From: Intestinimonas timonensis
GTDB taxonomy: Bacteria; Bacillota; Clostridia; Oscillospirales; Oscillospiraceae
Assembly: GCF_900626145.1 (NCBI RefSeq)
Contig: NZ_LR130817.1
Coordinates: 397,643 to 461,642 of the forward strand
Direction of reading: 5' to 3'
Length of the DNA stretch: 64,000 nucleotides
The position numbers and the translations under genes were made by a program. Positions 43,650-63,194 of the stretch are shown here, one piece after another. The stretch's first letter is position 1; the number at the start of each line of letters is the position of its first letter. The notes beneath the pieces were generated by a model. That model searched no databases, was not told the origin of the DNA, and was given only the letters and a program-made list of their open reading frames with translations.

Positions 43650-44393
43650 TTAAAAAATTGTCGTTCCGTAGGCAGGCATAGGATTGAGCTTGTGAAGGTT
43701 GTGATCGTGCATAGAGGCAATCTTCTTGTCGATTTCCTCAATTCCACTGGTGCCATACATGATGTAAGCATCCAGGTGAGCATAGGTAAATCCAAGATTA
43801 TCCTCATCAGTTTTTCCACACAGCCCATCGGAAGGGATCTTGCTTATCAGGTTGATAGGCAGAAGAAGCTCGTACCCAATCTGGATGACTTCATGCACCA
43901 TCAGATTAGCGAGCGGGCTAAAATCGCCGGCGCTATCGCCAAACTTGGTAGAATATCCCACATAGTCTTCAGAGCGGTTGCAGGTATTAGCAACACGTCC
44001 GCCGTGAGGCAACGACTGAGAAATAGCATAGAGGGTCGCCATACGGATACGGGGAGGGAGGTTTATCCTCGTCTGATCGCTGACGTTCATATTGAGCGCT
44101 ACTTGATCACTTACCGCAGACACTGCTTTGGAGATATCGGTATAGGCGTATCTGATACCCAGAAATTCGATCAGCTGCTTGCTATCGTCCAGATCGGGCT
44201 GTTCTCCATTCGGCATCATAACACCCACTACACGCTCTTTGCCCAGTGCCTCTACGCAAAGAGCGGCGACAACGCTGGAATCTTTACCACCAGAAATACC
44301 GATCACCGCATCGCAGCCAGGGCCGTTACTTTCAAAGTAGGAACGAATCCACTGGACAATCTCATCCTTAGTACGCTTTGGGTTAGCTAACAT
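43650..44393 (-). CDS. nadE: NAD+ synthase
   Basis: 247 residues. Amidates nicotinic-acid adenine dinucleotide to NAD+. PP-loop SGGKDSSVVAAL at 34-45, substrate region NTCNRSEDYVGYSTKFGDSAGDFSP and GLCGKTDEDNLGFTY. No N-terminal glutaminase, so ammonia dependent. Start 44393 after AAAAGAGGTG. First (in map order last) of four NAD-related genes. Confidence 0.93.
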   Translation of the reverse strand: MLANPKRTKDEIVQWIRSYFESNGPGCDAVIGISGGKDSSVVAALCVEALGKERVVGVMMPNGEQPDLDDSKQLIEFLGIRYAYTDISKAVSAVSDQVALNMNVSDQTRINLPPRIRMATLYAISQSLPHGGRVANTCNRSEDYVGYSTKFGDSAGDFSPLANLMVHEVIQIGYELLLPINLISKIPSDGLCGKTDEDNLGFTYAHLDAYIMYGTSGIEEIDKKIASMHDHNLHKLNPMPAYGTTIF

Positions 44394-44409
44394 TGTGGCA
44401 CCTCTTTTC

Positions 44410-45903
44410 TCAAAAGTTTCCCTCATGAAGATTCTTGCGAACCTCATCCAGGGTATAAATTCTCAGGAGCTTGCCATCCTTGAAAACTGGCTGAAGCCAG
44501 TTCCCAACCTGCGACTCCTCCCAAGTCAAACCGTCCTGGCAGAAGAAGTTGTGGTACGTATAGTCATATACAACCTTACAGCAGCCGCGCTGAGACTTCT
44601 TGAAATGTCCGCTATCTGTCTTGGGGTTCTTAAAAATCATGATGGGCTTTCCGTCAGCATCTTCTGCATAGGTCGCTTTGACTGCGATACCAAATGTATC
44701 ACGGGTGTACGGCGCATAAGTCTTTTCGCCGCCGTCCATCGTCTCCAGACACTGCATAGAGAAAGAACCGACGCCCAGAGAAACATTGTTGATAGCGAAG
44801 CCATGCTCCATCAGGATCTTATACACTGCCTCGCACCGCTGCGGGGTAATGCTGTCGCCATACAATGCCTTGACGTGTGGATCAAGAACTTTGTAACCCT
44901 TGCTGTTCACGGTACCACCAAAAATTTCCCACAGTTTGAACACCGTCTCGGTTACAATCTCCACAGGGTTGCCGCTGTCGCCGCGAATAGCAAGACATCC
45001 ACGGTGCTCCATCACATCCTCTTTAATTACAGGGAGAATATTATTGACCAGGTTCCAATAGTCATAGCTGTCACTGACCATAGAGAAGTTTTGGTACGGA
45101 TAGATTTCTTTCAGTAGACGCCGCACGTGCGTAATCTCGTCGCCGTCAACCGCATAGTTGGAGCACATAACACTGTGCTCAGTAGAAAGAGCACCATAAG
45201 CTACTGCGTCATTCTCCACCCGGCAGGCGTAGTTGTGTTCCAGCCAAAGAATAGCCGGCACTGTAGCGGTATTAAGGAAGCTCAGGCAGAACGCAGCAGA
45301 ACTCTTGGTGGCGCTCTCCACGCTTTCCTGACCACGCATGGAAAAGTCGCCCAGTAGCTTGGCCCGTACCACATCATCGTCACAGGTAAGGGCAGCGTAC
45401 TTATTGACGATCTGCCGGTAACGATATCCAACTTCCGCTGAAATCTGAGTATGCCACATGGTACATGACAGCATTGTTTCGATAGAGTTGACCAACCACA
45501 CAAAGTTGGGATTGGTATTCGAGATCTCAATTTGCGGAACATGAATATTGGTACGGGTTCCTTCCGGCACGGCCCGGATTTCCAGAGGCAGATACCCCAA
45601 CTTATGAAGCGCCGTCAAACGCTCCACACCAACGCCGTCCGTGCCGATGGTGTTATTCAGCACCCGCTTGTATTCGGCAAGCACCTCATCCAATGAGCGA
45701 TCAAAGAAGTGAGTATTGAATGCCTCGATCAAATACTCCTGGATAAATGCCTGAAGACCGAACATTGTGACCTTCTCGGTATCAGCCAGCCGTGTCATGC
45801 GCGGGGTGTAATAAGACACCATCTTGGTCAGTGCTGCGGGGTACTGCTCTGCATGGGCAGTCTTGTAGAAGTCCAAACAGAGCAAAGGACTGTATGAAAT
45901 CAT
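44410..45903 (-). CDS. Nicotinamide phosphoribosyltransferase-like enzyme (NAMPT or Namat)
   Basis: 497 residues. NAMPT-fold signatures at the expected sites: DFYKTAHAEQYP (11-22), LGDFSMRGQES with Asp186, TEHS with His243, AIRGDSGNP with Arg307/Asp309 (Gly replaces the usual Pro308), and LYGDSI with Asp350. In salvage, NAMPT joins nicotinamide to PRPP. In the phage NARP1 pathway a NAMPT-like enzyme instead joins nicotinamide to ADP-ribose pyrophosphate. The adjacent PRPP-synthetase-like gene makes the second reading attractive; sequence alone cannot decide. Confidence 0.9.
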   Translation of the reverse strand: MISYSPLLCLDFYKTAHAEQYPAALTKMVSYYTPRMTRLADTEKVTMFGLQAFIQEYLIEAFNTHFFDRSLDEVLAEYKRVLNNTIGTDGVGVERLTALHKLGYLPLEIRAVPEGTRTNIHVPQIEISNTNPNFVWLVNSIETMLSCTMWHTQISAEVGYRYRQIVNKYAALTCDDDVVRAKLLGDFSMRGQESVESATKSSAAFCLSFLNTATVPAILWLEHNYACRVENDAVAYGALSTEHSVMCSNYAVDGDEITHVRRLLKEIYPYQNFSMVSDSYDYWNLVNNILPVIKEDVMEHRGCLAIRGDSGNPVEIVTETVFKLWEIFGGTVNSKGYKVLDPHVKALYGDSITPQRCEAVYKILMEHGFAINNVSLGVGSFSMQCLETMDGGEKTYAPYTRDTFGIAVKATYAEDADGKPIMIFKNPKTDSGHFKKSQRGCCKVVYDYTYHNFFCQDGLTWEESQVGNWLQPVFKDGKLLRIYTLDEVRKNLHEGNF

Positions 45904-45924
45904 TGTTTTACCCTCTTTTCATAA

Positions 45925-46737
45925 TCATCTGCAAATGGAGATCTTCTCGTGATCAATACGGAGGATGCTATCAGTGGCGAATACACGAGAGATAAGACCA
46001 TCTGTCAACACAGTGCCTTTCAGGATCGTATTCTCACAGTGGGTAACATAGAGCATAACTTTCTGCGCGCCGGCCTCTTTCAGAGCTTTGGCAGTATGGG
46101 TGAATGTCCCACCGCGAGAGCAGATATCGTCCACGATCAGAATATTTCTGCCGTTGACTTTCTCAGGCTCTGTCAGCTCCAGCCGCTCAATCTTTCCGGT
46201 GCGCCAGTCACGATGTTTAATGCAAAAAACATACTCCATAGGAAGAAGCTCAGAGTATCGTTTGGCGGCACCTTCATCCGGGTAACACAGCAGAGGATTC
46301 AGACCCTGACTGACCATCCACTGGATTGCATAGTCGATGTAGTGCTTCACATCCATAGTCTCAGCCCGGTTAATCAGCGCCATAGCCACATTAGAGTGGG
46401 GGTCGAGAACTTTGACAGACTCGAACCCGAGCGAATTGATAAACTCGGCGAACCACTTGAGCGTGAATACCTCGTCGCGGTTCTTCACCCTGTCCATACG
46501 GGCGTTGGGGATATACGGCATCTCCAGATAGAGGAGCGGGTTGCCGGCGCTCTTGAGGTGCTTCACCAAATACCAGAGCTGCATACACTCGGCATCATTG
46601 TCGTACATCCACCGGATGAAGTAAGCGGATTTACCCATGGCGAAAAACGTGAAGTCCAGCTTGGGAGCAATACGGATCGAAGATGTACCGTCGGGGAAAC
46701 TGGTGAAGTCGATCCTTCTATCGTCAACAAAAATCAT
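45925..46737 (-). CDS. Ribose-phosphate pyrophosphokinase-like enzyme (Prs or Adps)
   Basis: 270 residues. Tandem phosphoribosyltransferase folds with YIPNARMDRVKNRDEVF (75-91) and the PRPP loop LIVDDICSRGGTF (200-212). About 45 residues shorter than cellular Prs and without its catalytic flexible-loop and allosteric features, as for phage Prs-like proteins. Makes PRPP, or ADP-ribose 1-pyrophosphate if it is an Adps. The gene is 21 bases from the NAMPT-like gene, so both are made together. Confidence 0.88.
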   Translation of the reverse strand: MIFVDDRRIDFTSFPDGTSSIRIAPKLDFTFFAMGKSAYFIRWMYDNDAECMQLWYLVKHLKSAGNPLLYLEMPYIPNARMDRVKNRDEVFTLKWFAEFINSLGFESVKVLDPHSNVAMALINRAETMDVKHYIDYAIQWMVSQGLNPLLCYPDEGAAKRYSELLPMEYVFCIKHRDWRTGKIERLELTEPEKVNGRNILIVDDICSRGGTFTHTAKALKEAGAQKVMLYVTHCENTILKGTVLTDGLISRVFATDSILRIDHEKISICR

Positions 46738-46738
46738 T

Positions 46739-47305
46739 TCAGACCTCCCAGTTCTCCACATTGATCTGACACGCTTTCATAGCAGCCAGAGCATTGTTGT
46801 GGCTCGCCGGGGTAACGCCGGCGCAGCAGGCAGCGTCAACGGTGATTTTCGTCTCAGGCAGAAACGCTTTGACGAGCAGTGCGTTAGAGATAACGCAGAT
46901 GTCGGTGCAGAGTCCAACGAAAACGATCTCTTCAATGCGCTGCTTCCTTCTGGCAGAAAGCTCTACCAGGTAATCGCCCAACTCCACAGAGCCAAACGTA
47001 CCTTTCTGGAATACGGATACGCTTTTCCCCGCGTCGATAGCCGCATGGCTAACAGCCGTGGCAATGATATCGTCGAGCCGCCAGCCGTGAGTCCCCTCAA
47101 TGCAGTGCTCGACAGGAAGCAGCTGACCTTCTTGGGTTTTCAGGTAGTCGGCAGAACGATGGGTGTCCTTGGTAATGCAAATCAGGTCTCCGTCAAAGCC
47201 GGAAATCTTTTTAGCGACATCTCCAACAGCGGCCTGCGCCTCCGGGGTTCCGAGCGCACCATTGATGAAATCGTTTTGCATATCCACTACTACAAGAACC
47301 TTCAT
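46739..47305 (-). CDS. Isochorismatase-like hydrolase, probable nicotinamidase
   Basis: 188 residues. Catalytic set visible: Asp8 (VVDMQNDF), Lys101 (FQKGTFGS), Cys137 in GLCTDICV; DTH at 47-49 could bind the metal used by nicotinamidases. Would turn nicotinamide into nicotinate. Ends one base before the Prs-like start. Together with NadE it would complete the deamidating branch of NAD salvage, though PncB and NadD are not here. Confidence 0.82.
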   Translation of the reverse strand: MKVLVVVDMQNDFINGALGTPEAQAAVGDVAKKISGFDGDLICITKDTHRSADYLKTQEGQLLPVEHCIEGTHGWRLDDIIATAVSHAAIDAGKSVSVFQKGTFGSVELGDYLVELSARRKQRIEEIVFVGLCTDICVISNALLVKAFLPETKITVDAACCAGVTPASHNNALAAMKACQINVENWEV

Positions 47306-47318
47306 CTTAAACAACTCC

Positions 47319-48131
47319 TTAAAATGAGCACTCACACGGTAGATCATCGTCGTCCTTGATGAGCTTTCGTGCAGCGGCCCAAAATGTTTGAGGTTTGGCT
47401 TTTTCAGTGGGCGGCAACGCCTTTTCTTTGAGCTTGGCAAATTCCGCCTCAAAATCTGAAAGATAGCCTTGTTTGAGAATACTGTACCCGATTGTGTCTT
47501 CGGCCAGCTTCGCCTTTTCCCATATTTCAGGATAGAGACAATAAACAACAAACCAATGTTGTTTGCCAGCTTTCAAACACCCGGTACAATTCGCATGATT
47601 GAAAATGCTGTAGGTCTTCGGACGCTCGATCCCAACCTCCTCGATGTCATGGATAGTACGCACCTCCCATGTCAAAGGGTACTCTGTTTGGTACCCCATC
47701 GCAGCCATAATGCCAACTCTGCGCCGAATACGGTGCTGTTCATTGGCGTCAAAGCCATAGACTAATGAGATATCGTCCCTTACTTCGGGAGGATTTGCGG
47801 GATAGTGCTCGGACAGCCATTTATGGAAAGGTTCGGTCTTCAGTCTGTTAGTGCAAAAGGCGGTGGACTGAGCGCCAGCCTTAAACGCCCTGATTTCCAT
47901 ACACACGTCGAACTGATCCTTAACATCCCATCCGGGCATATTGGCGTAAGTAATGGGAACGCCCAGATAATCCGAAACCTCTTTTTTGAAACGCTTGATA
48001 TCAGCGTCTTCGGTTCGAGGACACAAATCATGATTGAGCAAGATCGTGTCCTCTGCTCCGAACTTTCTAACTACTTCTACGGCGGCAATCGCAGAGGAAT
48101 GACCGCCAGAAAAACAAACGATGTGCTTCAT
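47319..48131 (-). CDS. PP-loop ATPase of the PAPS-reductase/DndC class
   Basis: 270 residues. PP-loop FSGGHSSAIAAVE (about 6-18), then LLNHDLCPRTEDADIKRFKKEVSDYLG, FCTNRLKTEPFHKWL and CTGCLKAGKQHWFVVY with Cys pairs that may hold a cluster or persulfide. This group adenylates a substrate for sulfur or amine transfer. A cysteine desulfurase is encoded at 52.5 kb, so a sulfur-modification role is possible. Start uncertain: 48131 or 48146. Confidence 0.8.
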   Translation of the reverse strand: MKHIVCFSGGHSSAIAAVEVVRKFGAEDTILLNHDLCPRTEDADIKRFKKEVSDYLGVPITYANMPGWDVKDQFDVCMEIRAFKAGAQSTAFCTNRLKTEPFHKWLSEHYPANPPEVRDDISLVYGFDANEQHRIRRRVGIMAAMGYQTEYPLTWEVRTIHDIEEVGIERPKTYSIFNHANCTGCLKAGKQHWFVVYCLYPEIWEKAKLAEDTIGYSILKQGYLSDFEAEFAKLKEKALPPTEKAKPQTFWAAARKLIKDDDDLPCECSF

Positions 48132-49224: not shown

Positions 49225-50139
49225 TCAGTGTGCATTGCGGTCACAGGTATTCAACACCATGACCTGGTTCCAGATATCATTACCAAGCAGACGCTTAATT
49301 TTGCTAACCGTCTTACTCGGATTATCTGACTTTTCAACCGCATACGGCCACATATGCCAGCGGATCAGCAGCGCCACAGTAAGGCGCTGGTTAGGACTGA
49401 GATCGCCGGTATAGCAGAAGCTGTCATAAGCTCCTACACGCTCATGATGATAGAAGTGGGCGATCTCAGTGGGGTTGCCTTTGATGTCATGAAATACTTT
49501 GGTCTTCTCTTTGCCAATATCGTGTAACAGTGTGGCGCGGAGCAGAGTAGCATCGGCACCTTTATAGTGGCTAATCAGATACTGCCATGCCGTCATAGAG
49601 TGCTGACCAACCGTGTACTCGTGGTGCGGGTTATCATGTTCCAGCTTGGAGAGACGAAGCATAAGGGTATCAATCTGGTCGTGGCGATCTTCGTCACCCA
49701 CGATCCTGATTTCATCCCAACCCTCCGCCATCATGGGAACATCGAATTTGAAGTACATCTTTTGGATTACAGACTCCGGGACAGAACGTTCCCGATTATT
49801 GTTGCGCTCCAAACACACTTCATAGGGCGTCGCCATGAAAAGACATACTGTACGCAAATCATGTTTGTGGAGCGCTCGGACACGATCAAGGAACCCGATA
49901 CGGCGCTTGTAGTTGATATTGGTTGCGTCGTACACCACATCCTTGCCATCCGCCAGATCCTGCAAAACCCTTTTGTGAAGGGTTTGGAAAACCAAGTCCT
50001 GTTGGGTTTGGTCGTTCTCGTCACCAAGAACTTCGACACGGATCGCATCGCTGGAGTGGACGACGGCGTTAGGGATGCTTTCGGCAGTGAATGACTTCCC
50101 GCTACCAGGGAGGCCAACCATCATGTAAAACATCGGCAT
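49225..50139 (-). CDS. Polynucleotide-kinase-like protein with HD domain
   Basis: 304 residues. Kinase domain with P-loop VGLPGSGKS (8-16) and YDATNINYKRR (70-80), as in Pnkp 5'-kinases that phosphorylate RNA ends; then an HD phosphohydrolase domain with HDIGKEK (206-212) that may take off 3' phosphates or cyclic phosphates. Start ATG 50139 after AAGGAGG. First of the contiguous RNA-repair genes with RlaP and ligase. Confidence 0.85.
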   Translation of the reverse strand: MPMFYMMVGLPGSGKSFTAESIPNAVVHSSDAIRVEVLGDENDQTQQDLVFQTLHKRVLQDLADGKDVVYDATNINYKRRIGFLDRVRALHKHDLRTVCLFMATPYEVCLERNNNRERSVPESVIQKMYFKFDVPMMAEGWDEIRIVGDEDRHDQIDTLMLRLSKLEHDNPHHEYTVGQHSMTAWQYLISHYKGADATLLRATLLHDIGKEKTKVFHDIKGNPTEIAHFYHHERVGAYDSFCYTGDLSPNQRLTVALLIRWHMWPYAVEKSDNPSKTVSKIKRLLGNDIWNQVMVLNTCDRNAH

Positions 50140-50140
50140 C

Positions 50141-50974
50141 TCATTCACCTCCTTGGATTTCCTTTAAGAAGGATCGTTTGAGAATTTCAACGGTAGCCTT
50201 TTGCAGTACCTCATTGGCGTGCTGGTTGATCGAAACAGGCACCGTATCCATATAGCGCTTTTTGTCTTCGGTCATAGATTGAATTGCAGTGCTCATCAGT
50301 GCCCGTGCTTCTTCCAAAGAGTAGCAACCGCGCTTCACCTCTTTGAGATAATCACACTGGTTACTGATAAGACAGTCAGCGTAAGGCTCGCCGGCTTCGT
50401 AACGGGTCATAAACTCCCGCAGCCGCAGAGCATGGTGAAGCTGCTTCGGGTCATACCCAAATGCCTCAATCTTGTCCATTGTGGCAGGGTAGGGGTGCTC
50501 CATTGCCTTTTGCTTTTCCAGAGCCATACCCATAATGCAGTTCATCCCGGCGTAGTTGTTGTACCGAGCGATCTCTTCACGAGCATCCAGAACAGGCTGG
50601 AAAAGATCGGCATACTCCGGGTTGATGATGGAGTAAGGGGTGAACAGGATCTCAACGAAGTTGACATTCTGCTTCTTGATACAGTCGAACATAAGGCGGA
50701 TGTCTTTGAAATCCACGTGCTCGTCGTTCTCCATAATGTGGGTAGTGCTGAGAGGTTTGGCGTTCAACACGAAATCGGAAAAGCTGGGCAACATGATTGC
50801 CTTGGTGTCAATATCGCTACCCTCATAGTCAAGGTTATAATTCTGAGAACCTTGCAGGAAGAGGCCAACCCAGCCTCCCCTGCAATGCTCCAAGACGGGC
50901 ACCAGATGTTCCCGCATCCGCGCCATAATCTTCTGGCGCTTCTGCTCATTCTGGATCAAAGTCGTCATCGTCAT
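50141..50974 (-). CDS. RNA-ligase-associated nucleotidyltransferase (RlaP-like)
   Basis: 277 residues. Polymerase-beta fold with GSQNYNLDYEGSDIDTKAI (42-60) carrying the GS and DxD metal motif, followed by an all-helical domain. Matches the RlaP family that co-occurs with RNA ligases. May repair or extend RNA 3' ends before ligation. SD AAAAAGGAG. Lies between kinase and ligase. Confidence 0.85.
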   Translation of the reverse strand: MTMTTLIQNEQKRQKIMARMREHLVPVLEHCRGGWVGLFLQGSQNYNLDYEGSDIDTKAIMLPSFSDFVLNAKPLSTTHIMENDEHVDFKDIRLMFDCIKKQNVNFVEILFTPYSIINPEYADLFQPVLDAREEIARYNNYAGMNCIMGMALEKQKAMEHPYPATMDKIEAFGYDPKQLHHALRLREFMTRYEAGEPYADCLISNQCDYLKEVKRGCYSLEEARALMSTAIQSMTEDKKRYMDTVPVSINQHANEVLQKATVEILKRSFLKEIQGGE

Positions 50975-51083: not shown

Positions 51084-52478
51084 TCATCCATTCTGTTCTC
51101 CAACATCCTGAGCTTCTTCCATATCAGGCGCGGCGGCGGTGTCTTTGATCAGCCCCTCCAGCGCCTTGAACGCAAAGTTTTTATGCTTATAGGCGGCGAA
51201 CTTGGGACGGTTGACAATGCGGCACACAACACCTTCCCGAACATGGGTATGGCCGACAGGATCGGGGCCGTCATAATACTGCTCGGCTTTGGTTTTAATC
51301 CATTCGCCAGCATTAGTCAGTTCGCAAGAAGTTCCTGTGAAGATTTCCTCTTCGGGAATAAGCCCCCTATACATCAGAGGAACATATTTGACGCCCATCT
51401 GTTCGCAACGATAGCGCATAAAGTCGGGCGGATACTCCACCACATCGCCGTCTTCGTTGGTCATCGTCATGCGGTAAACGAAAAGATCGGACTTGGGATG
51501 TTCCTTGCCATCGGGAGCGCAGCCATAGCTGAATGTGGTGGTTTTACCGTACTGTTTGGTAAATTCCTTGTCGTTCAGCTTAGAGTTATTTCCGGGATTC
51601 ATGATGGGCGTACCGTCATCAGTGAATCCAACGACCTCATAGTAGACTGTCTCTCCCTTGTGGAGCTTTCCTTCAAAGACCTTGGCGTGTTTCTCGCGGA
51701 AAGCGTTATTACCGTAGTAGCCTCCCTCATCGAAGGTGTCCAGAACCACGCGGCGGGTTCCGGTGACGTAGCCCCAGTCATAGATGGGCGTCCGCTTGAT
51801 CTTGGAACGAATCGCATTCGGGGTCTTACGACTCTCATAGAGCCGCTTTTCCATACCGTTCCGATATTTATAGCCCTGCAACACAGGCAGATAGCCGGTA
51901 CGCTGAGAAGTTCCGTGCATTTTCAGGGTAACTTCTACCAGATCCCCGGCATGGAATGCGGAGAGGTTGTAGGCCAACTGCTCCGTGTCAGCGTGTTCTT
52001 GGAAGAGCGGGGAGATAGGATCAGAACGCTTACGAACATGATTGCCACCCCCCCCACTACCGGAAGAGCGTTTGACGGCGGGTACGTACTTCTCGCAGAT
52101 AGTGATGCCGTTCAACACAGAGATCGTGTCGCCCTCTTGGAGTTTCTTGATATCGGTAAAAGAAGCCAAACAGGAGAGAGGGAGGAACAGACCGTCGCTC
52201 TTCTCGCCCCGGAGCTTGAGAGCCTTAATATTCCGCTTCTCCGGGTCAAGGTATCCGCCAGCCGGAGCGCCGTTCTCATCCTTACGCCGCAGCAAGTCAT
52301 TCTTCTGTGCGAACTCCAAACCGAGTTTGCCATCGGTAGGGAAGTACACGCCCAGCTGATCAGGGGCGGTGCCGAGATCCACAATCACCGTATTACCGAA
52401 GCATTCGCCACAGAGCAGCCGGTCGGCATTGGTATGCTTCCTCAGATTGTGAATCCTGGTAACATAGGCACAGTACAT
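51084..52478 (-). CDS. RNA ligase, DRB0094 (Rnl5-like) family
   Basis: 464 residues. N-terminal OB-like domain (MYCAYVTRIHNLRKHTNADRL), then the nucleotidyltransferase core: motif I KMHGTS with Lys186, motif III region YYEVVGF, motif IV REGVV, motif V AYKHKNFAF. Seals 3'-OH/5'-phosphate RNA ends. A Gly-rich hinge (139-146) is encoded by a G8 tract, in frame at present. Start ATG 52478 because GTG 52487 overlaps the AAGGAG. After the stop, about 110 bases hold only overlapping short frames. Confidence 0.92.
   Translation of the reverse strand: MYCAYVTRIHNLRKHTNADRLLCGECFGNTVIVDLGTAPDQLGVYFPTDGKLGLEFAQKNDLLRRKDENGAPAGGYLDPEKRNIKALKLRGEKSDGLFLPLSCLASFTDIKKLQEGDTISVLNGITICEKYVPAVKRSSGSGGGGNHVRKRSDPISPLFQEHADTEQLAYNLSAFHAGDLVEVTLKMHGTSQRTGYLPVLQGYKYRNGMEKRLYESRKTPNAIRSKIKRTPIYDWGYVTGTRRVVLDTFDEGGYYGNNAFREKHAKVFEGKLHKGETVYYEVVGFTDDGTPIMNPGNNSKLNDKEFTKQYGKTTTFSYGCAPDGKEHPKSDLFVYRMTMTNEDGDVVEYPPDFMRYRCEQMGVKYVPLMYRGLIPEEEIFTGTSCELTNAGEWIKTKAEQYYDGPDPVGHTHVREGVVCRIVNRPKFAAYKHKNFAFKALEGLIKDTAAAPDMEEAQDVGEQNG
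52048..52055 (-). repeat. Homopolymer tract, coding-strand G8
   Basis: In the hinge of the RNA ligase, in frame. Confidence 0.9.
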
Positions 52479-52497
52479 TATATTCACTCCTTGTTAA

Positions 52498-53747: not shown

Positions 53748-53762
53748 TTTACTTTGTTGCTT
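53748..53762 (-). repeat. 15-base intergenic repeat, copy 8
   Basis: TTTACTTTGTTGCTT overlapping the DUF2828 stop codon and preceding a long hairpin. Confidence 0.75.
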
Positions 53763-55320
53763 ATGCGGAGATAATAGGACGAAGGGCATCGTCCACCTGC
53801 TGATACCGCTCCGCGTTGATGGCCTCCAACAGGCAGTCGTAAGGATCAGTCTGTCCGCTCATCACCATCTTGGCGATATTGACAGAGAATCCGCTGACCA
53901 GTGCCACACCCATATCGTTTTCCTTAACAGGGATAGTGCCGGTGCGACTGGCAACATTCCAGAAGACCAGCCGAGGCATCTTATATCCAGCAGCTTCATA
54001 CCGCTGAGAGATTTCCTCAAACAGACGGGGAGAAGGACGCCCATTGCATACATATCCCCATCCATTACTACGAACAGGGCCGCTTACGGCACAGCCGTTG
54101 AACTCCATATCAGAGATGATGAGGATATTGGCAGGTAAATCGTCCTGCTTCATATGATTGTTGATCGCCGTGGTAAGAACCAGATCAAATACAGCCTCGA
54201 TGTTAGTGCTACCACCAACATGGCAGCTATTACAGATGCCCAGCTTCTCTCGCAAATTCTTTCCTCGGCTCAGATCGACAAGCTGAGGATTCTCGGAAAA
54301 TGTCATGAACTGATCCTTAAACTGCCCGGAAGAGCGCTCGGCAAAGTAGATTGCCATAGCATTCGCTACCTCCAAGGGGCGAGCCTTGCTCCCGGGGATA
54401 GTTACCCATGTCATGCTGGCGCTGTCATCCTGGACGACCATAGTATTGCCACAACCCTCTACGGTATCAGGCAGATGCTTCCACAGCTCCTCAATAGTGT
54501 CGTCAACACCAGAAATGCAACGATACTTATTGACGATATCATGAGGGAACAACGTCCCAGCGTTGATCTTAGCATCGCCCTTCTTTACCTGGTCAAGAAA
54601 AGTGCGCCGGCGATCCTCGTCGTGGCGGAGGAAAGCACTGTTATACTGCAGGTTAGCACGAGAGGGGACACGCTGATAGTCGATCCCCTCCCACTGCTTG
54701 GCGGTCATCTGCTGCTCCACAACGAGCAGGTAACGGGAAAGATTGGCGAGGGTGTGCTGATACTGGCGCTCAGTCATGCCGACAGCCTTCCGCAAAATCT
54801 GGGCATAATGCCGAGTTTGTTTGGAAGAAGTCTTGCAGCGGGGCATCCACTTTGCCAGGAGAGAAATGGGCTTGTCCTCTGCCGCATTTTGGGCGTCGTC
54901 ATAAAGCTGCCCTTTGACCAGCCCAGTCACGCAGTCACGCACGGGCGTATCCAGCAGGCACCACAGATCGTCCCAGCGACCGTACTCAGGTACCAGTGCC
55001 ACCACAGGGGCGACGTACTCGGGAAACTCCTTCGCCAGAGGCACCATACAGGCACGGAACAGCCGGCGTTCGCCCAGGCCACCACGGACATCACGAGCAT
55101 AAAAGAGCCATTTCATTGCCATCAACTTGTCCTCGAAGAACGCCTTAGTGAAGCGCTGAGAGATGTCGTGCTCGCTGGCGCTACGGAGAGATGCCACAGC
55201 GAAATTGAGATCCAGGAGAGCCTTGCCGGTAGTGCGGAAGCCGACTGCACCGTTCTCGGTGACAGAGACATTGCACTCGTTATTCAGCGTGCTCTTGATC
55301 CCATCCATAAAGTTACTCAT
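53761..55320 (-). CDS. DUF2828 protein (TROVE plus vWA, Ro60-like)
   Basis: 519 residues. DUF2828 signature: TENGAVGFRTTGKALLDL, then WLFYARDVRGGLGERRLFRA (72-90) and PEYGRWDDLWCLL in a HEAT-like ring, followed by a vWA domain with the MIDAS VVQDDSASM (about 305). Ro-type proteins bind misfolded or non-coding RNAs, including tRNA-like Y RNAs. Its gene lies immediately downstream, in transcription order, of the interrupted tRNA cluster. SD AGGAGGTAAG. Binding to these tRNAs is inference. Confidence 0.85.
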   Translation of the reverse strand: MSNFMDGIKSTLNNECNVSVTENGAVGFRTTGKALLDLNFAVASLRSASEHDISQRFTKAFFEDKLMAMKWLFYARDVRGGLGERRLFRACMVPLAKEFPEYVAPVVALVPEYGRWDDLWCLLDTPVRDCVTGLVKGQLYDDAQNAAEDKPISLLAKWMPRCKTSSKQTRHYAQILRKAVGMTERQYQHTLANLSRYLLVVEQQMTAKQWEGIDYQRVPSRANLQYNSAFLRHDEDRRRTFLDQVKKGDAKINAGTLFPHDIVNKYRCISGVDDTIEELWKHLPDTVEGCGNTMVVQDDSASMTWVTIPGSKARPLEVANAMAIYFAERSSGQFKDQFMTFSENPQLVDLSRGKNLREKLGICNSCHVGGSTNIEAVFDLVLTTAINNHMKQDDLPANILIISDMEFNGCAVSGPVRSNGWGYVCNGRPSPRLFEEISQRYEAAGYKMPRLVFWNVASRTGTIPVKENDMGVALVSGFSVNIAKMVMSGQTDPYDCLLEAINAERYQQVDDALRPIISA

Positions 55321-55393
55321 TATCTCTTACCTCCTATATTGAGATACCCAGGACACACTTTTTATTTACTGTTGCTGTTTATGCCCAGAGAAA

Positions 55394-55517
55394 TGGAGCG
55401 GCAGGTAGGACTCGAACCTACGAATGGCAGCTTGGCTTCCTTGAACATTGCTGTTAGCGGAACTCCTCGTTTCGCATTGTAATAGGGCTGCTGTGTTGAC
55501 CACTTCACCACTGCCGC
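55394..55517 (-). tRNA. tRNA-Gly(GCC)-like gene interrupted in the anticodon loop
   Basis: Acceptor GCGGCAG/CTGCCGC with encoded CCA, D arm with GTGGT, anticodon stem GCAGC/GCTGC, T arm GTAGG-TTCGAGT-CCTAC. The anticodon loop is 55 bases instead of 7; taking GCCAA as its 3' end leaves a 48-base insertion (about 55,437-55,484) containing AATGCG ... CGCTAACAGCAA. After removal position 33 would be C rather than U, so the exact junction or identity is uncertain. Confidence 0.8.
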
Positions 55518-55656
55518 ATGAAGCTCGTCTTTCCGAGCCGTCACAACCCAGTTCAAGATATTTGGGTTGAATATCTGGCGTTTATCGTCAGCATAGACAT
55601 AAACGATCCCAAAGCCCTATGCCTATCCGCCCATTAGCAGGGGCGGCTTCTGCTTG

Positions 55657-55773
55657 TGCCAGGGGTGGGACTCGAACCCACGACCACGGGATTAACAGTC
55701 CATAGAAAGTTGCTGTAAGCGTCTCAACAAGACACGCATTAGTACGCGCTCTGTCCGACTGAGCTACCCTGGC
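55657..55773 (-). tRNA. tRNA-Asn(GTT) interrupted by a 43-base insertion
   Basis: Exon 1 is 55,745-55,773 and exon 2 is 55,657-55,701. Joining them gives a flawless 74-base tRNA: acceptor GCCAGGG/CCCTGGC, D arm GCTC/GAGC, anticodon arm CGGGA-CTGTTAA-TCCCG, variable TGGTC, T arm GTGGG-TTCGAGT-CCCAC. The insertion 55,702-55,744 splits the 5' strand of the anticodon stem between its second and third base pair; no other junction restores the fold. It holds AATGCG, a hairpin, then CGCTTACAGCAA. No encoded CCA. Confidence 0.9.
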
Positions 55774-55800
55774 GTACGCCCCGCCGTAGCGGGGCTATTT
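55774..55800. other. Hairpin upstream of the tRNA-Asn
   Basis: GCCCCGC/GCGGGGC with a four-base loop followed by TATTTT on the plus strand. On the minus strand it precedes the tRNA 5' end and might guide processing. Confidence 0.5.
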
Positions 55801-55826
55801 TGCATGACCCCTCTTATGTGCATTTT

Positions 55827-55994
55827 CTACTCAAACCCAGCCGTATAATACGGCAAACAGTTATACCGATCGGTTCGGCTTCCCGCACTATTATGGCTGG
55901 CGGCGAACCAGGTTTTCACCGTACTGTAAATTATCGGGGTCGAGATAATGACATACGGCAAGGAACAACAGACAAGCAAACCCATATTCAACAT
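55827..55994 (-). CDS. Small hydrophobic protein between tRNA genes
   Basis: 55 residues (MLNMGLLVCCSLPYVIISTP, then a polar tail). A good AGGAGGTG lies 10 bases before ATG 55994. One membrane helix at about 4-25. Not recognised. Confidence 0.4.
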   Translation of the reverse strand: MLNMGLLVCCSLPYVIISTPIIYSTVKTWFAASHNSAGSRTDRYNCLPYYTAGFE

Positions 55995-56041
55995 TAGTCT
56001 GTTGCACCTCCTTTTTTTGTGGCTACACTAAGTAGCTTGTT

Positions 56042-56165
56042 GCAAGGAGTGGGACTCGAACCCACGACAATCAGTTCCCTTTTTACATAGCTGTTAGCGC
56101 AACTGGGGGAGGGGAACGTTACGCATTTTTTATACTGGTGCTCTACCAACTGAGCTATCCTTGCA
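56042..56165 (-). tRNA. tRNA-Pro-like gene interrupted in the anticodon loop
   Basis: Acceptor GCAAGGA/TCCTTGC, D arm GCTC-AGTTGGTA-GAGC, anticodon stem CCAGT/ACTGA (one mismatch), T arm GTGGG-TTCGAGT-CCCAC. Loop is 58 bases; removing about 51 (56,081-56,131) can leave ATAGGGA, anticodon AGG, with U33 in place. The A-rich edges make the junction ambiguous, so the identity is tentative. The insertion has AATGCG and CGCTAACAGC. Confidence 0.7.
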
Positions 56166-56532
56166 TGGCGGGAGGCTTTTTCATTGCTGTCTGCGTTGCT
56201 CTGTACGCATACGAATACGGAAACCTCCCAGAAACCGCTATATCCGTAAAATGGCTCTTTGCCACGTGTGCGGGACACATTCTCATTTCCAAAGCAGGTA
56301 ATGTTGATGGTTGCTGTTAGTGCCCCATTTCGTTACTGTTCATTCATCGTCGCATTCATCACTATACTGTCATCCGAAGATGACTTAGGGCTTGTCTCGT
56401 ATTCTATTCATGGCTTCCTCCACATACCCGGCGCTGGACGCCGCTGCCGCTGATCACTTTGAATCACAGAACGATAGCCAGGAACTTCTTCATGACACAC
56501 ACAACCCTTCTTATAGATTGATGACGGTTTTT
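56166..56532 (-). other. Non-coding stretch with a free-standing copy of the tRNA-insertion core
   Basis: No convincing gene. It holds AATGCG (56,351-56,356) and CACTAACAGCAA (56,311-56,322), like the tRNA insertions but without a recognisable tRNA around it; a GTCATC-TTCG-GATGAC hairpin (56,369-56,384); and very short frames, including one of nine codons MKKFLAIVL. Could be a decayed tRNA or a separate RNA. Confidence 0.4.
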
Positions 56533-56644
56533 TTAGGAGCTACGGAGTCGAACCGTAAGCAAAAGTTTTGCAGACTTTCAAGGTAAAATTGCTGTGCGTG
56601 TCCACCGTCGATTACACGTTATGAGCTGCCACCGGACGCTCCCA
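56533..56644 (-). tRNA. tRNA-Cys(GCA)-like gene, interrupted and atypical
   Basis: 3' part is clear: anticodon arm AAAGT-CTGCAAA-ACTTT (GCA, Cys), T arm TACGG-TTCGACT-CCGTA, acceptor GCTCCTA pairing with TGGGAGC (one G-T) at the 5' end. Total 112 bases, about 40 too long. The extra bases lie before the anticodon stem and contain CGTGT ... ACACG CACAGCAA. A normal D arm cannot be drawn, so it may be a tRNA-like (Y-RNA-type) molecule instead. Confidence 0.5.
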
Positions 56645-56727
56645 TGTCGCCCGTCTTTCCGGGCCGTCAGCGGTCTTTCCCGCCGTCAGAGAGAGGAGGT
56701 GATAAAGAGTTCGCCGCTATTGCGGCT

Positions 56728-56818
56728 TGGCGGAGGGGATGGGACTCGAACCCACACACCCTTTCGGATTACTAACAGTTTAGCAAACTGCTTCCTTACC
56801 AGTTAGGATTACCCCTCC
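56728..56818 (-). tRNA. tRNA-Ser(GCT), uninterrupted
   Basis: 91 bases with encoded CCA. Acceptor GGAGGGG/CCCCTCC, anticodon loop TTGCTAA with stem CAGT/ACTG, long variable arm with ATCC-GAAA-GG, T arm GTGGG-TTCGAGT-CCCA. It shows that not every tRNA in the cluster carries an insertion. Confidence 0.92.
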
Positions 56819-56830
56819 ACGCTTTTCAAC

Positions 56831-56887
56831 GAGACGCATTGAGTCAAAGTAAAAGTTTGATAGTTGTAAAATTGCTGTTAGCGCCTC
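56831..56887 (-). ncRNA. Circularly permuted copy of the tRNA-insertion core
   Basis: On the minus strand GAGGCGC-TAACAGCAA opens and AATGCG-TCTC closes the element, pairing GAGGCGC with GCGTCTC; order is reversed relative to the tRNA insertions. The enclosed part has a TCAAA-CTTTTAC-TTTGA hairpin with a 7-base, anticodon-like loop. No flanking tRNA halves are seen. Confidence 0.4.
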
Positions 56888-56913
56888 ATGCTCCGGTTGG
56901 TCAACCGAATGAA

Positions 56914-57219
56914 TTACTCACTCACGCTCTCTGCGGGACTGGTATCCAGGAGCTTTGCGAAGTTGGCGATGATAGCGGTATTGTTCTTCCGCTGCTGGGA
57001 CATGGCGGCGCGTGTCGCGGCCAGTTCCTTGGAATAGGTGTCGATCTCAGCCAGGTCGTTGTCGATCTGCTGGTTGATACCCTCCAGCTCATTCATTGTT
57101 CTGGTAACGATGTCTACCGCCTCGCTTGCCTGACGAGCCAGACGAGCAACCTCAGTCTGCTTTTCCTGCAGGAGATCGCGGGTGACAGGTACGGGGACGG
57201 CGTTTTTACGGAATTTCAT
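56914..57219 (-). CDS. Coiled-coil phage protein
   Basis: 101 residues, mostly one long helix (VTRDLLQEKQTEVARLARQASEAVDIV and on). Not recognised. Start 57219 after GAGGAGTGAAAGC; preceded by a 15-base repeat. Last protein gene before the tRNA cluster. Confidence 0.6.
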   Translation of the reverse strand: MKFRKNAVPVPVTRDLLQEKQTEVARLARQASEAVDIVTRTMNELEGINQQIDNDLAEIDTYSKELAATRAAMSQQRKNNTAIIANFAKLLDTSPAESVSE

Positions 57220-60032: not shown

Positions 60033-63000
60033 TTAGCTGATCTTCTGCTCTCCCCAAGAGATTTTGAAGTTTCCGTCCTCGTCTGCCTCACGAGACATCA
60101 GCAGGCTCATCAGGTCATAATCCACGCCAAAGCGGTCATACACCTCATCCAGATCTACGTCCTGCCCCTTCATGAAAAGGTTCAGTTTCTCTTTGGCGAG
60201 CACCATTTGCATCTGGTTGGACTCAATGCTTCCAGAGTAAGTAACAAAGTAGATGTCTTTCCAGTCCGTAGAGGTAAAGCGAACAAACCGCATATAGAAC
60301 TGGCTCATCCGCGCATTGTTGTAATGCAGCTCCGGGATGATAACTTTGTTGACGAACTCAAAGTTGACAGAGGAGGGGAGGCACTGCTGGGTACAAAGGA
60401 GAATGCCGTTTCCGCTTTCTTTCAGAGTATTTTTTAGCTTCCGACGTCCGGCCAGAGTGGTGGTAGAGCCGGTCACGACAAACAGCTTCCGATCCGGGAA
60501 TCTTCTGCGGATTTCATTAGCGTATGCTTCCACTACGTTCTTATGGCGGACACCAATAACTACAATCTCATCCTTCCATTCGCCCACCATGTCACAAACC
60601 TTCCGAATTTTGACCGGCGTATTCGGGCTGTCGTATTCCTCTACAGTGTTGGGTGCAGCAGAGATACGGAGCAACAAAGTAATCTGCTGGATCAGCGCCA
60701 TCATGTTATCCTTGCGACTATTCCCGGTAAGGGCGAAGTATCGCTGGCGCATGGAGAAAAACTCTTCCATGGCCTTTTGATAGACTTCACGCTCTGCAGG
60801 AGCAAATGAAACTGGGGTTTGATGAAGTCTACGTATCTCTTTGCCGGTGATCTCCGCGAAAGTCCGGGTGATGACCGAGTAAGAGAGGAGCTTGTTCAGG
60901 ACATCCGCATTGTAAATGTCCTGGGTTTTCTTACCCACTCCGAAAACGGTGATCCGCTCAGGCAGATGGGATTCAGCGAACAGACTGTATCCAGCTTTAT
61001 AAGCAGGGAAGGGCTGGCCGTAGTAAGGATTACTTGAACAGTTCAGATATTCCTCGCTGTCATCCTTCTCATAGCAATACAGATCTTCTGCCCAGGAGAG
61101 CATATTGTAAGAGTTGTTATAAAGCAGCTCAAGCTGAGGCGCACATTCCGAGATGTTGTTCCGGGTGACAGTGCCGGTCATTTCCAGCTTAAACCGTACT
61201 CTCCGAAAACAATCCAACACAGCCTTTGTGCGCTTGCTATCCGGGTTGGTCATCTCGTCGGACTCATCGAACACCAAGCACACATTCTGGTTCCGCATTT
61301 TGATATGGCGCTTGATCTGCTTACGGTACTTGGTAAGCATATTCAGGGTGATGATAACGAACTCCCCATCCTGTACTTTGTCGAGGTCGGCGAGGCACTT
61401 TATCATCCGGTAGTTGGTCATGCCATAGTTTTTGAACACCAGATCCCAGTTGTTCTTGATGGAGATAGCAGTGGACACCACCCACACGTTACGAGCGCCC
61501 TGACGCTCCATCCGATACCGGCCTGTGGAGATGCCGGCCAGCGTCTTGCCACCACCCTGTTCCCACTGCAACAGATGATAGCGCTTCTGAAGAACGAGGT
61601 TCAGGTCGTGCTTCTGGGTGTTATTGAGGTGAATCCACTCCTCGTTCTCATTATCATAAACGGTAAAGTCATCCAGGAACTGAGCGATCCCGGCGTCCTG
61701 TTCCATCTCGGTAAAAGGTTTCGTCTCTCGCTCATAGTCGCGCTGCTTACGACGAATAAGGCGGGCATACTGCTCAAGACCTGTATCATCCGCTTGTCCA
61801 GAGGCAAGGGCATAGAAGGGAACGAGCTGTTTCATGCCGTCGCTCATGCTGTTCTGCGCCTTTTTGCTGTACCCTTTGTAAATCAGCCCTCCATTCTGCT
61901 TGACCAGTCGTACCACATCCTGGCTGGGCTTCTTATGCTGAGACTTGATAACACGACGAAGATAGGCCAGTACCTTAGCTTCCGTGATACGGATTTTTGC
62001 CCATTCCTCATACTTCATATCCTTGGGCTGTTCCTGATGGCGGAACTTGTAGAGATATTCCTGACACTTGGCATATTTGTCTATCAGTTTGGGGTTGGAC
62101 TTGATATGGAACATCAGCTTCCGCACTTCATACTCGAACGCATTATCGCTCCCACCCATCGACGCCAGCTTAACGCGGGCACTATTGCTCCGCATCCGCT
62201 CTCTGGCCGGGGCAACGATTTCCTTACGAACAATCTCAAGCAGTCCTGCCGCGTTATTCATGTCGGTCAGATTAAACCAGTTGGCGCTGTTCAGAGCATA
62301 AGGTTCTCCCTTGTCGGCGGCGTCCAGCTTCTTCTGCCAAAAGAGTATCTTGGTAGCGTAGCTATCCACACCAAGAGATTTGAACGCATCCTTCTGAATG
62401 GAGACCTGACCCAGGAAAGAGAAATCTTTTGCCAGTTCGGAAATTTTCGCGCCGTCCAAATATTCGTCGGCCAGGAAAGACGCCGGCACCACAATCGCCA
62501 TAATGCCCAGAGGCTTCAGCAGCTTCGCCGCTTTCAGGCAGTAGTACATCTGAGAGATGATCTCGCCATCCTCCGTCTCCCATTTCAGATTGAACGGAGG
62601 GTTGCCCACTACATAGTCAAACCGCATATTCGGCTGATAGAAACGGATATCACGGTGTTCCAGATTAGCGGCAGGGTAAAGGTAGTGTGCTACTTTGTGG
62701 GACTTGATGTCCAACTCACAGCCGTAGAAGTTTGCCTCCAGCGGCATGAAGTTACAGAAGTTGGCGATGCCAGAGGTGAGGTCTGCTACCGTTTCGTCCA
62801 TAGCAGGGGACAGCGCCTCCATGATAAACTGGCAAAGAGCGGGAGGCGTAAAGAACTGACCGTTCTCGATCTCCTTCTTAGCCTCCGCATACTCATGATA
62901 GTTGGCAAAGTCAGAGCGTTTTAGGCCATGCAATCCACCGTCTCCGGTATAGGCATTATAGATATCCTCGCGGGAGATCCCAGACTGTTCGGCCAAATCC

Positions 63001-63080
63001 TGGTCTACCAAATAGAGGATCTTGTCGTTCAGCTCCTGTCGGGCTTCCTGGGGAATCGGTTCGTTAAGGTATTGATACTT
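60033..63080 (-). CDS. N6 DNA methylase-SNF2/DEAD helicase fusion
   Basis: 1015 residues. N-terminal methylase: FFTPPALCQFIME (77-89), SAM motif VADLTSGIANF (99-109), NPPFNLKWE (161-169). From about 500 a superfamily 2 helicase: EQGGGKTLAGIST (Walker A), VFDESDEMTN (DEAD-like box), and VVTGSTTTLAGRRK in the second RecA lobe. Similar combinations occur in the P1 antirestriction protein DarB and in restriction systems; no nuclease domain is seen. Start 63080 after AGGTGAAAG. Confidence 0.85.
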   Translation of the reverse strand, partial: KYQYLNEPIPQEARQELNDKILYLVDQDLAEQSGISREDIYNAYTGDGGLHGLKRSDFANYHEYAEAKKEIENGQFFTPPALCQFIMEALSPAMDETVADLTSGIANFCNFMPLEANFYGCELDIKSHKVAHYLYPAANLEHRDIRFYQPNMRFDYVVGNPPFNLKWETEDGEIISQMYYCLKAAKLLKPLGIMAIVVPASFLADEYLDGAKISELAKDFSFLGQVSIQKDAFKSLGVDSYATKILFWQKKLDAADKGEPYALNSANWFNLTDMNNAAGLLEIVRKEIVAPARERMRSNSARVKLASMGGSDNAFEYEVRKLMFHIKSNPKLIDKYAKCQEYLYKFRHQEQPKDMKYEEWAKIRITEAKVLAYLRRVIKSQHKKPSQDVVRLVKQNGGLIYKGYSKKAQNSMSDGMKQLVPFYALASGQADDTGLEQYARLIRRKQRDYERETKPFTEMEQDAGIAQFLDDFTVYDNENEEWIHLNNTQKHDLNLVLQKRYHLLQWEQGGGKTLAGISTGRYRMERQGARNVWVVSTAISIKNNWDLVFKNYGMTNYRMIKCLADLDKVQDGEFVIITLNMLTKYRKQIKRHIKMRNQNVCLVFDESDEMTNPDSKRTKAVLDCFRRVRFKLEMTGTVTRNNISECAPQLELLYNNSYNMLSWAEDLYCYEKDDSEEYLNCSSNPYYGQPFPAYKAGYSLFAESHLPERITVFGVGKKTQDIYNADVLNKLLSYSVITRTFAEITGKEIRRLHQTPVSFAPAEREVYQKAMEEFFSMRQRYFALTGNSRKDNMMALIQQITLLLRISAAPNTVEEYDSPNTPVKIRKVCDMVGEWKDEIVVIGVRHKNVVEAYANEIRRRFPDRKLFVVTGSTTTLAGRRKLKNTLKESGNGILLCTQQCLPSSVNFEFVNKVIIPELHYNNARMSQFYMRFVRFTSTDWKDIYFVTYSGSIESNQMQMVLAKEKLNLFMKGQDVDLDEVYDRFGVDYDLMSLLMSREADEDGNFKISWGEQKIS

Positions 63081-63194
63081 CATTCTTTCACCTGCTCTAT
63101 CTTTCTTTTTCTGGAGAGAGGCTTTTGTGCGGAGTCCTCTCAGAACCGCGCCCCTCACTTCTATTACAGAAAGAAAAGGGGGATTGCTAACCGG

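What the first reader, a model, noticed from the sequence alone, without database searches (positions are those of the whole stretch)
55394..56644. Phage tRNA genes interrupted by 43-51-base insertions with a shared core
Seen: the tRNA at 55,657-55,773 becomes a perfect tRNA-Asn(GTT) when 43 bases are removed from the anticodon stem. Two others (55,394-55,517 and 56,042-56,165) have 48- and about 51-base insertions in the anticodon loop, and a fourth (56,533-56,644) is about 40 bases too long. The insertions are unrelated in loop sequence but share AATGCG, a hairpin closed by GCG/CGC, then TAACAGCAA. They are far too short for group I or II introns and the junctions are not at the usual 37/38 site. 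Inference: a new class of small bacterial/phage tRNA intron or cleavable insert. I know of no described family that fits.
Basis: partly seen in the sequence, partly recalled or inferred. Interest (0 to 1): 0.93.

Follow-up and report, generated by a model that had tools for sequence, protein, structure and literature searches.

The report
Tiny introns splitting phage tRNA genes
A structured RNA element of about 45 bases interrupts tRNA genes in this prophage-like region and in many other phages, and in others it brackets tRNA genes whose two halves lie in reverse order; it is likely cut out of the RNA so that the halves are joined, which would be a new and very small kind of splicing element.

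Summary
Three window tRNAs (Gly, Asn, one with a Pro-like loop) hold copies of one element: A-rich arm, AAU/AAC, a stem of about 7 bp, UNACAGCAA, U-rich arm. A fourth, Cys-like gene holds a weaker copy. A model built without window sequences ranks the three clear inserts first in the window. Three layouts were found: (1) inserts in tRNAs (99 cases, 69 loci); (2) circularly permuted tRNA genes, 3' half before 5' half, with the opened stem bracketing them (137 solvable cases, 108 loci); (3) mini permuted copies (162), 71 with an anticodon-stem-loop-like hairpin (shuffled mean 9.6). Leaving the element out gives canonical tRNAs, fully paired with U33 in 59 of 99 and 76 of 137. In named jumbo phages the separated halves of tRNA-Lys show compensatory pairs across the insert. 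The 5' junction is mostly CG|U. It is not group I, group II or BHB and matches no Rfam family. No protein was shared by nine carriers, and RNA ligase or RtcB was not found in all. Best reading: a compact splicing element, likely RNA-catalysed. Excision and catalysis are inferred; no transcript data were available.

The parts
55397..55517 (-). tRNA-Gly gene (anticodon region GCC) with an insert in the anticodon loop; best 48-nt excision 55438-55485, other splits tie
   Evidence: Rfam tRNA 49.5 bits; R1 hit 55444-55481, E=2.9e-4; splits; coordinates
55657..55773 (-). tRNA-Asn(GTT) gene with a 43-nt insert 55702-55744 between positions 28 and 29
   Evidence: unique perfect split CG|UA; joined form called tRNA-Asn(gtt) by ARAGORN, interrupted form not; R1 E=1.8e-5
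56041..56164 (-). tRNA gene with a 51-nt insert (56081-56131) in the anticodon loop; Pro-like NGG loop; identity uncertain
   Evidence: Rfam tRNA 53.1 bits; R1 E=1.4e-4; split ambiguous
56531..56650 (-). Cys(GCA)-like interrupted tRNA, diverged; element at 56585-56623; similar genes in L011, L042, L045, L049, L054, L057
   Evidence: R1 16.9 bits, E=0.18; similar genes seen; no clean join derived; outer limits approximate
56829..56889 (-). mini permuted copy: stem strand 1 - UAACAGCAA - hairpin UCAAA-CUUUUAC-UUUGA (UUU anticodon-loop-like) - AAU - stem strand 2
   Evidence: 18 nt identical in Cronobacter phage GAP32
56271..56327 (-). second mini permuted copy (stem UGGGGCAC/GUGUCCCG), no anticodon-loop-like hairpin
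56170..56229 (-). intron-type copy in a GGGAGG/CCUCCC hairpin, no tRNA recognised, CG|UA at the presumed 5' junction
   Evidence: R1 13.0 bits, E=1.7, so weak; sequence; similar copy upstream of the same tRNA in L011
55351..55386 (-). hairpin between tRNA-Gly and the DUF2828 gene holding AAACAGCAACA in its loop; L011 keeps a stem there with changed pairs
   Evidence: by inspection only
56728..56818 (-). uninterrupted tRNA-Ser(GCT)
   Evidence: ARAGORN, Rfam
53761..55320 (-). DUF2828/DUF7788 protein next to the tRNAs
   Evidence: Pfam PF25043 1.2e-41, PF11443 6.8e-36
51084..52487 (-). RNA ligase-like protein (PF09414, just under the curated cut-off)
   Evidence: E=7.9e-5, 23.3 bits, cut-off 27
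50141..50974 (-). 277-aa protein of unknown function between ligase and kinase, conserved in some related phages
   Evidence: no Pfam match; match in 15 of 42 records
49225..50148 (-). AAA_33 kinase-like domain fused to an HD domain (RNA end-healing candidate; function inferred)
   Evidence: PF13671 3.1e-19, PF01966 5.3e-5

Best explanation
The interrupted tRNA genes carry a compact structured element (AAU or AAC, a stem of about 7 bp, UNACAGCAA, with an A-rich and a U-rich arm; median insert 46 nt) that in other phages brackets tRNA genes whose 3' half precedes the 5' half, and it is likely spliced out of the transcript, probably by its own RNA, so that the two tRNA halves are joined. Shown by sequence: the covarying stem; three layouts (inside a tRNA; opened at the hairpin loop and wrapped round a permuted tRNA; wrapped round a short hairpin); canonical tRNAs after removal; compensatory pairs between the separated halves; a 5' junction that is mostly CG|U, on a short helix that is most often ACG/CGU. 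Inferred: the precursor folds as a three-way junction of that exon helix, the anticodon stem-loop and the element stem, which holds both junctions together; the conserved single strands form the active site; in the permuted layout joining would give a circular pre-tRNA that RNase P and 3' trimming open; in the mini layout it would give a small circle with an anticodon stem-loop, possibly a decoy or modification target. Confidence in splicing itself about 0.9; in RNA catalysis about 0.45.
For: Stem: 99.5% of 210 cells paired, covariation 1.149 against 0.278 shuffled and at most 0.193 slid. Offset control over 1328 motif sites: permuted-orientation stem at 168 with the strand ending right before NNACAGCAA, 118 and 45 one and two bases on, 8-29 at offsets -24 to -1, 9 and 4 at +3 and +4; hairpin orientation 60 at 0, 27 and 18 at +1 and +2, 9-18 at -24 to -1. 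Permuted tRNAs: 148 motif sites followed by 3' half then 5' half of one tRNA; stem in 85 at offset 0, 41, 58 and 23 at -1, +1 and +2, 1-7 at -12 to -2, 0-2 at +3 to +7; 39 scrambled motifs (18,320 sites) gave 51 such orders and 0 stems. ARAGORN: 99 of 99 interrupted genes called after the best split, 1 of 99 before; 137 of 137 permuted after joining, 0 before; halves mixed between genes 20 of 73. 5' half ends in CG in 33 of 40 unique interrupted and 26 of 43 unique permuted splits, against 211 of 1130 ordinary tRNAs with CG at 27-28 or 28-29. Homologous Lys-type tRNAs of named phages: pairs 27-28/42-43 are CG/CG in three and GG/CC in four of seven. For RNA rather than protein: no protein family found in all nine carriers compared, best 7; no RNA ligase match in 13 of 42 records and RtcB above cut-off in 2 of 42.
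Against: No transcript, cleavage or ligation data. Best splits were chosen to give good tRNAs, and ARAGORN tolerates shifts of up to 3 nt (56-59 of 59), so its score does not fix the junction. All cases were collected by requiring ACAGC[AT]A, so that motif's invariance is imposed by the search; named-phage homologues read GCAGCAA or TCAGCAA, and Vibrio phage D479's departs further. Rows of A1 were chosen for having a stem, which inflates. Loci were fetched by patterns with the motif near a T arm, and searches also with CGTA, which inflates CG|UA for interrupted genes but not for permuted ones. Anticodon-loop inserts (Gly, Pro-like) often leave no U33. 40 of 99 interrupted and 61 of 137 permuted genes do not give a fully paired arm with U33. 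There is no 3' junction consensus beyond A/U before and often G after. A 45-nt splicing RNA has no precedent known to me. The protein survey is blind to diverged and host proteins and uses contigs that may be partial; 29 of 42 records do have a ligase match.
Confidence: 0.6

Rival explanations
1. The element is a recognition and folding signal for protein splicing: an endonuclease cuts at the three-way junction and an RNA repair set (kinase-HD healing, RNA ligase sealing), like the one encoded beside the window tRNAs, joins the halves.
For: RNA ligase-like, kinase-HD, DUF2828 and an unknown 277-aa gene lie next to the window tRNAs; 29 of 42 element-related records have an RNA ligase match at E up to 0.01, many below the curated cut-off; splicing of introns this short is done by proteins wherever it is known (general knowledge).
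Against: 13 of 42 records show no ligase of the tested kinds, eight of them contigs of 100 kb or more; RtcB above cut-off in 2 of 42; no protein shared by nine carriers. Contigs may be partial, and a host enzyme remains possible.
Confidence: 0.32
2. The insert stays in the RNA: these are tRNA-like decoys or modified tRNAs, for instance shielded from anticodon nucleases.
For: Loop inserts in Gly and Pro-like genes often give no U33; phage tRNAs that evade anticodon nucleases are proposed in print (PMC10264068, passages seen).
Against: Does not explain permuted genes, whose halves need joining, nor the split-stem products with compensatory pairs.
Confidence: 0.06
3. The inserts are DNA-level debris or mobile elements, and the host genes are dead.
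For: Serratia phage BF's copy is annotated as a tRNA pseudogene.
Against: Anticodon arms are kept and compensate across the insert; the element recurs in many phages in three layouts.
Confidence: 0.02

Closest known systems
Intron-bearing tRNAs of Lak megaphages (Devoto et al. 2019, PMC6784885; passages seen)
   Same: Introns in phage tRNAs, called enigmatic there and tested against Rfam by the authors
   Different: In Lak-A1 model R1 (E up to 0.2, strict filters) and the T-arm pattern find nothing, and two of its tRNAs of 101 and 104 nt lack ACAGCAA. ACAGCAA copies, one beside a CUUUUAA hairpin, do lie near Lak tRNAs (by eye), so a link is possible but not shown
Group I introns in bacterial and organellar tRNAs
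   Same: Autonomous introns in anticodon arms that work in permuted intron-exon form (general knowledge)
   Different: Much larger with a different core; no Rfam match here
Archaeal/eukaryal tRNA introns (bulge-helix-bulge, EndA, RtcB or Trl1)
   Same: Short inserts in the anticodon arm, excised precisely
   Different: BHB geometry at 0 of 83 predicted sites (shuffled mean 0.9); a conserved core; RtcB in 2 of 42 records
Circularly permuted tRNA genes of algae and an archaeon (recalled; Soma 2014 seen only as a cited reference in PMC10085705)
   Same: 3' half before 5' half with a short spacer, so joining would give a circle
   Different: Phage genomes; bracketed by this element instead of a BHB motif
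T4-type RNA repair (kinase plus RNA ligase countering the anticodon nuclease PrrC)
   Same: Repair-like genes sit beside the window tRNAs
   Different: A repair system, not an intron; not found in all carriers

Membership tests
Group I intron | Large conserved core, far above 100 nt, that the Rfam models recognise | tested here: not met
   window inserts 43-51 nt; no group I match at E up to 5 in 55300-57000
Group II intron | Domain V and size of hundreds of nt | tested here: not met
   same calls; no match
BHB tRNA intron | 4-bp helix between intron and 3' exon flanked by 3-nt bulges at the cut sites | tested here: not met
   0 of 83 unique splits; one simple geometry tested
BHB tRNA intron | RtcB-type ligase in the carrier | tested here: not met
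   above cut-off in 2 of 42 records; host enzymes not tested
Small self-cleaving ribozymes in Rfam 15 | match to a curated model | tested here: not met
   searches list tRNA and sub-threshold matches to unrelated families only
Circularly permuted tRNA genes | 3' half encoded before 5' half of one tRNA | tested here: met
   137 cases with bracketing stem and a joined product called by ARAGORN, 0 called as encoded
Circularly permuted tRNA genes | circular RNA intermediate | not testable with these tools
   no RNA data
Lak tRNA introns | same element in Lak tRNAs | tested here: inconclusive
   no R1 or pattern match in Lak-A1, but ACAGCAA copies near its tRNAs
Self-splicing ribozyme (as a kind) | protein-free cleavage and ligation | not testable with these tools
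   needs in-vitro transcription

The most novel reading that the evidence does not exclude
A self-splicing ribozyme of about 45 nt, the smallest natural splicing RNA, spread through phages of many hosts and used in three ways: as an intron in tRNAs, as the joint that circularises permuted tRNA genes, and as a maker of tiny circular anticodon stem-loops that act as decoys for anticodon nucleases.
Probability: 0.33. Interest if true: 0.98.

Novelty: categorically new. Interest (0 to 1): 0.95.

Why it matters
If it splices, it is an intron class with a core far smaller than any filed one, it explains phage tRNAs filed as pseudogenes or as unknown, and it adds permuted tRNA genes to phages. If RNA-catalysed, it is a minimal splicing ribozyme and a compact tool for making RNA circles. 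The claim is directly testable with one short transcript, and cultured phages carrying the element exist.

Tried and rejected
Exact core pattern AATGCG..CGCTAACAGCAA: 33 viral loci, of which only L011 shows a tRNA insert; the rest look like coding sequence or chance. Search for near-identical insert-free alleles: best single-gap identity 0.83, none close enough to fix junctions. The joined window tRNA-Asn matches uninterrupted phage tRNAs at up to about 85% over part of its length, 78% over nearly all of it. Pairing between the A-rich and U-rich arms: mean longest run 3.81 against 3.59 shuffled (maximum of 100 shuffles 3.80), too weak to use. A shared splicing protein: none in nine. RtcB and RNA ligase as required partners: not supported. 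My 12 comparison records, picked as having no interrupted tRNA, proved not to be element-free: six hold permuted copies and four match R1 weakly, so they are no negative control, and I pool all 42 records; this made me lower RNA catalysis from 0.5 to 0.45, the explanation to 0.6 and the novel case to 0.33, and raise the protein rival to 0.32. Of the 30 picked as insert-bearing, 23 keep a counted interrupted gene, L053 and L055 repeat L045's, L036 and L220 hold permuted copies, and L091, L230 and L243 fail the later filter. Bacterial chromosomes: R1 matched 1 of 120 genomes of one family, the seed genome itself; but R1 also missed the known copies of L298's genome (0 matches), so this absence is weak. 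Clean exon joining of the Cys-like gene: failed. Two of the 71 hairpins of the mini set are T arms (anticodon-like CGA).

Literature: searches listed no paper that I could see to describe this element or permuted tRNA genes in phages. The library lacks most subscription journals and the bioRxiv collection; of the papers opened I saw passages only.

Full report
What is in the window. On the minus strand of 55.3-56.9 kb lie five tRNA or tRNA-like genes. Only tRNA-Ser is uninterrupted. Rfam's tRNA model recognises three others with long insertions. The Asn gene becomes a perfect tRNA-Asn(GTT) when 43 nt between positions 28 and 29 are left out; ARAGORN calls the joined form and not the interrupted one. 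The Gly and third genes have inserts of about 48 and 51 nt in the anticodon loop with ambiguous borders. The fourth, Cys-like gene is more diverged and unsolved. The region looks like a prophage (integrase at 13315-14589, DNA polymerase and primase-helicase genes at 27-33 kb).

The element. A geometric tRNA finder gave 92 tRNA-like genes with the motif in an over-long middle part at first and 123 after more scans, some of which later proved to be permuted genes read across. Aligning 30 elements, none from the window, shows A-rich sequence, AAU or AAC, a 7-bp stem with a short loop that nearly always starts with G, then UNACAGCAA. The motif ACAGC[AT]A was required for collection, so its invariance is imposed; homologues in named phages read GCAGCAA or TCAGCAA, and Vibrio phage D479's departs further. 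The stem is 99.5% paired with changes on both sides at all seven pairs (covariation 1.149, shuffled 0.278, slid at most 0.193). These rows were chosen for having a stem, so this overstates the case; the offset tests do not depend on that choice. Model R1 puts the three clear window inserts first, with the Cys-like gene fourth and weak.

Second layout: permuted tRNA genes. Many ACAGCAA sites are followed by the 3' half of a tRNA, a spacer, and the 5' half of the same tRNA, and the element stem is formed by a strand before UNACAGCAA and a strand after AAU, as if the element had been opened at its hairpin loop and wrapped round the gene. 148 sites have this order. The stem is found in 85 at the expected offset, in 41, 58 and 23 at -1, +1 and +2 (neighbouring offsets can read the same stem), and in 1-7 at -12 to -2 and 0-2 at +3 to +7. 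Of 40 scrambled motifs, one (AACAGCA) overlaps the real motif (66 orders, 7 stems); the other 39 gave 51 orders in 18,320 sites and no stem. The excess of the order itself is inflated because loci were fetched with the motif near a T arm; the stem is not. With a looser stem rule there are 138 cases, 137 with a solvable join, in 108 loci. The spacer is short (median 6 nt). Encoded CCA is found right after the discriminator position in 22 of 123 spacers long enough, and 4 times at other offsets in the first 12 nt, against 751 of 1130 ordinary tRNAs of the same loci. Only three loci hold both interrupted and permuted genes.

Products. Inserts of the 99 counted interrupted genes run from 33 to 117 nt, median 46, 89 of them 38-57 nt. 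Over all 99 interrupted and 137 permuted genes the best joins are called as tRNAs by ARAGORN (99 and 137), against 1 and 0 as encoded. The joins were optimised for tRNA shape, and shifting those of the 59 perfect interrupted genes by up to 3 nt still leaves 56-59 called, so this supports two-half tRNAs but not exact borders; halves mixed between permuted genes give 20 of 73. 59 interrupted and 76 permuted genes give a fully paired stem with U33; 83 of these 135 have one best split, 65 of them at 28|29 or 29|30 (36 of 40 interrupted, 29 of 43 permuted). In that set the 5' half ends in CG in 33 of 40 interrupted and 26 of 43 permuted cases, followed by UA in 30 and 19, while 211 of 1130 ordinary tRNAs in the same loci have CG at 27-28 or 28-29. 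Some interrupted loci were fetched with CGTA in the pattern; permuted ones were not. The helix at the junction is ACG with CGU in 36 of those 65. In homologous interrupted Lys-type genes of Serratia phage BF, Erwinia phages pEa_SNUABM_50 and Kaldavass, Cronobacter phage GAP32 (two genes, one not annotated), Xanthomonas phage XbC2 and Pectobacterium phage CBB, the pairs joined across the insert are CG/CG in three and GG/CC in four: a compensatory change between halves about 60 nt apart in the gene. Three of the four GG/CC genes share the same anticodon arm, so this may be one or two events.

Third layout: mini permuted copies. 162 sites have the opened stem round a short body; 71 hold a hairpin with a 7-nt loop, U33 and a purine at 37, against 9.6 (maximum 19) in shuffled bodies; two of the 71 are T arms, and 20 read UUU. 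Control for the stem: 168 sites at the expected offset against 8-29 at offsets -24 to -1. The window has two mini copies. One shares 18 identical nt (AUCAAACUUUUACUUUGA) with a copy in Cronobacter phage GAP32. Similar copies lie near tRNAs of Prevotella phage Lak-A1 (by eye).

Mechanism. The junctions sit where exon helix, anticodon stem-loop and element stem meet. Permutability at the element's own loop is a property of autonomous splicing RNAs in general (known for group I introns). BHB geometry is absent (0 of 83). Rfam gives only tRNA and sub-threshold matches. The window encodes DUF2828, an RNA ligase-like protein and a kinase-HD protein beside the tRNAs. Over 42 viral records an RNA ligase match (E up to 0.01, many under the curated cut-off) is found in 29: 18 of the 30 picked as insert-bearing and 11 of the other 12; RtcB passes its cut-off in 2, both among the 12. 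The 12 are not element-free: six hold permuted copies. No protein was found in all nine carriers compared (blastp at 1e-4; best 7 of 9). I therefore favour catalysis by the RNA, with protein splicing as the serious rival. The missing U33 of many loop inserts is unexplained.

Where it occurs. 31 of 42 viral records match R1 at E up to 0.01: 27 of the 30 and 4 of the 12. Named phages with interrupted tRNAs include Serratia BF, several Erwinia phages, Cronobacter GAP32, Pectobacterium CBB, Xanthomonas XbC2 and Vibrio D479. Where named, existing annotation calls them tRNA-Lys, tRNA-Phe, tRNA-Ser or pseudogene. Among 120 bacterial genomes of one family only the seed genome matches, but R1 misses known copies in whole-genome searches.

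Known work. Devoto et al. 2019 report enigmatic introns in Lak phage tRNAs (PMC6784885, passages). I could not show that they are this element. Passages of PMC10264068 propose phage tRNAs as countermeasures to anticodon nucleases such as PrrC; the decoy idea for mini copies is mine and untested.

Noticed in passing
window 43650-47551 (minus): Cluster of NAD synthase, NAPRTase/NAMPT-like, phosphoribosyltransferase-like and isochorismatase-family genes; looks like a phage NAD+ rebuilding pathway that could counter NAD-depleting defences (recalled idea).
   Followed up: no
window 35601-39963 (minus): NMT1-like protein with an OmpA domain, PspA/IM30-like protein and ABC-transporter permease inside the prophage-like part; unusual cargo for a phage.
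   Followed up: no
window 60033-63158 (minus): 1041-aa protein with N6-methylase and helicase domains.
   Followed up: no
window 13315-14589 (minus): Tyrosine integrase close to a class II aminoacyl-tRNA synthetase (D/K/N type) gene, the likely prophage border.
   Followed up: no
L011 6378-6452: A short tRNA with an odd anticodon arm (ARAGORN: tRNA-???), possibly a gene that lost its insert.
   Followed up: no
L367 from about 1879 to 2010 (Prevotella phage Lak-A1, MK250015): ACAGCAA copies, one with a CUUUUAA hairpin, near Lak-A1 tRNAs, resembling mini permuted copies.
   Followed up: partly
L298 2890-2949: Sub-threshold match to the YrlA (Y RNA-like) family inside an interrupted tRNA region.
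   Followed up: no
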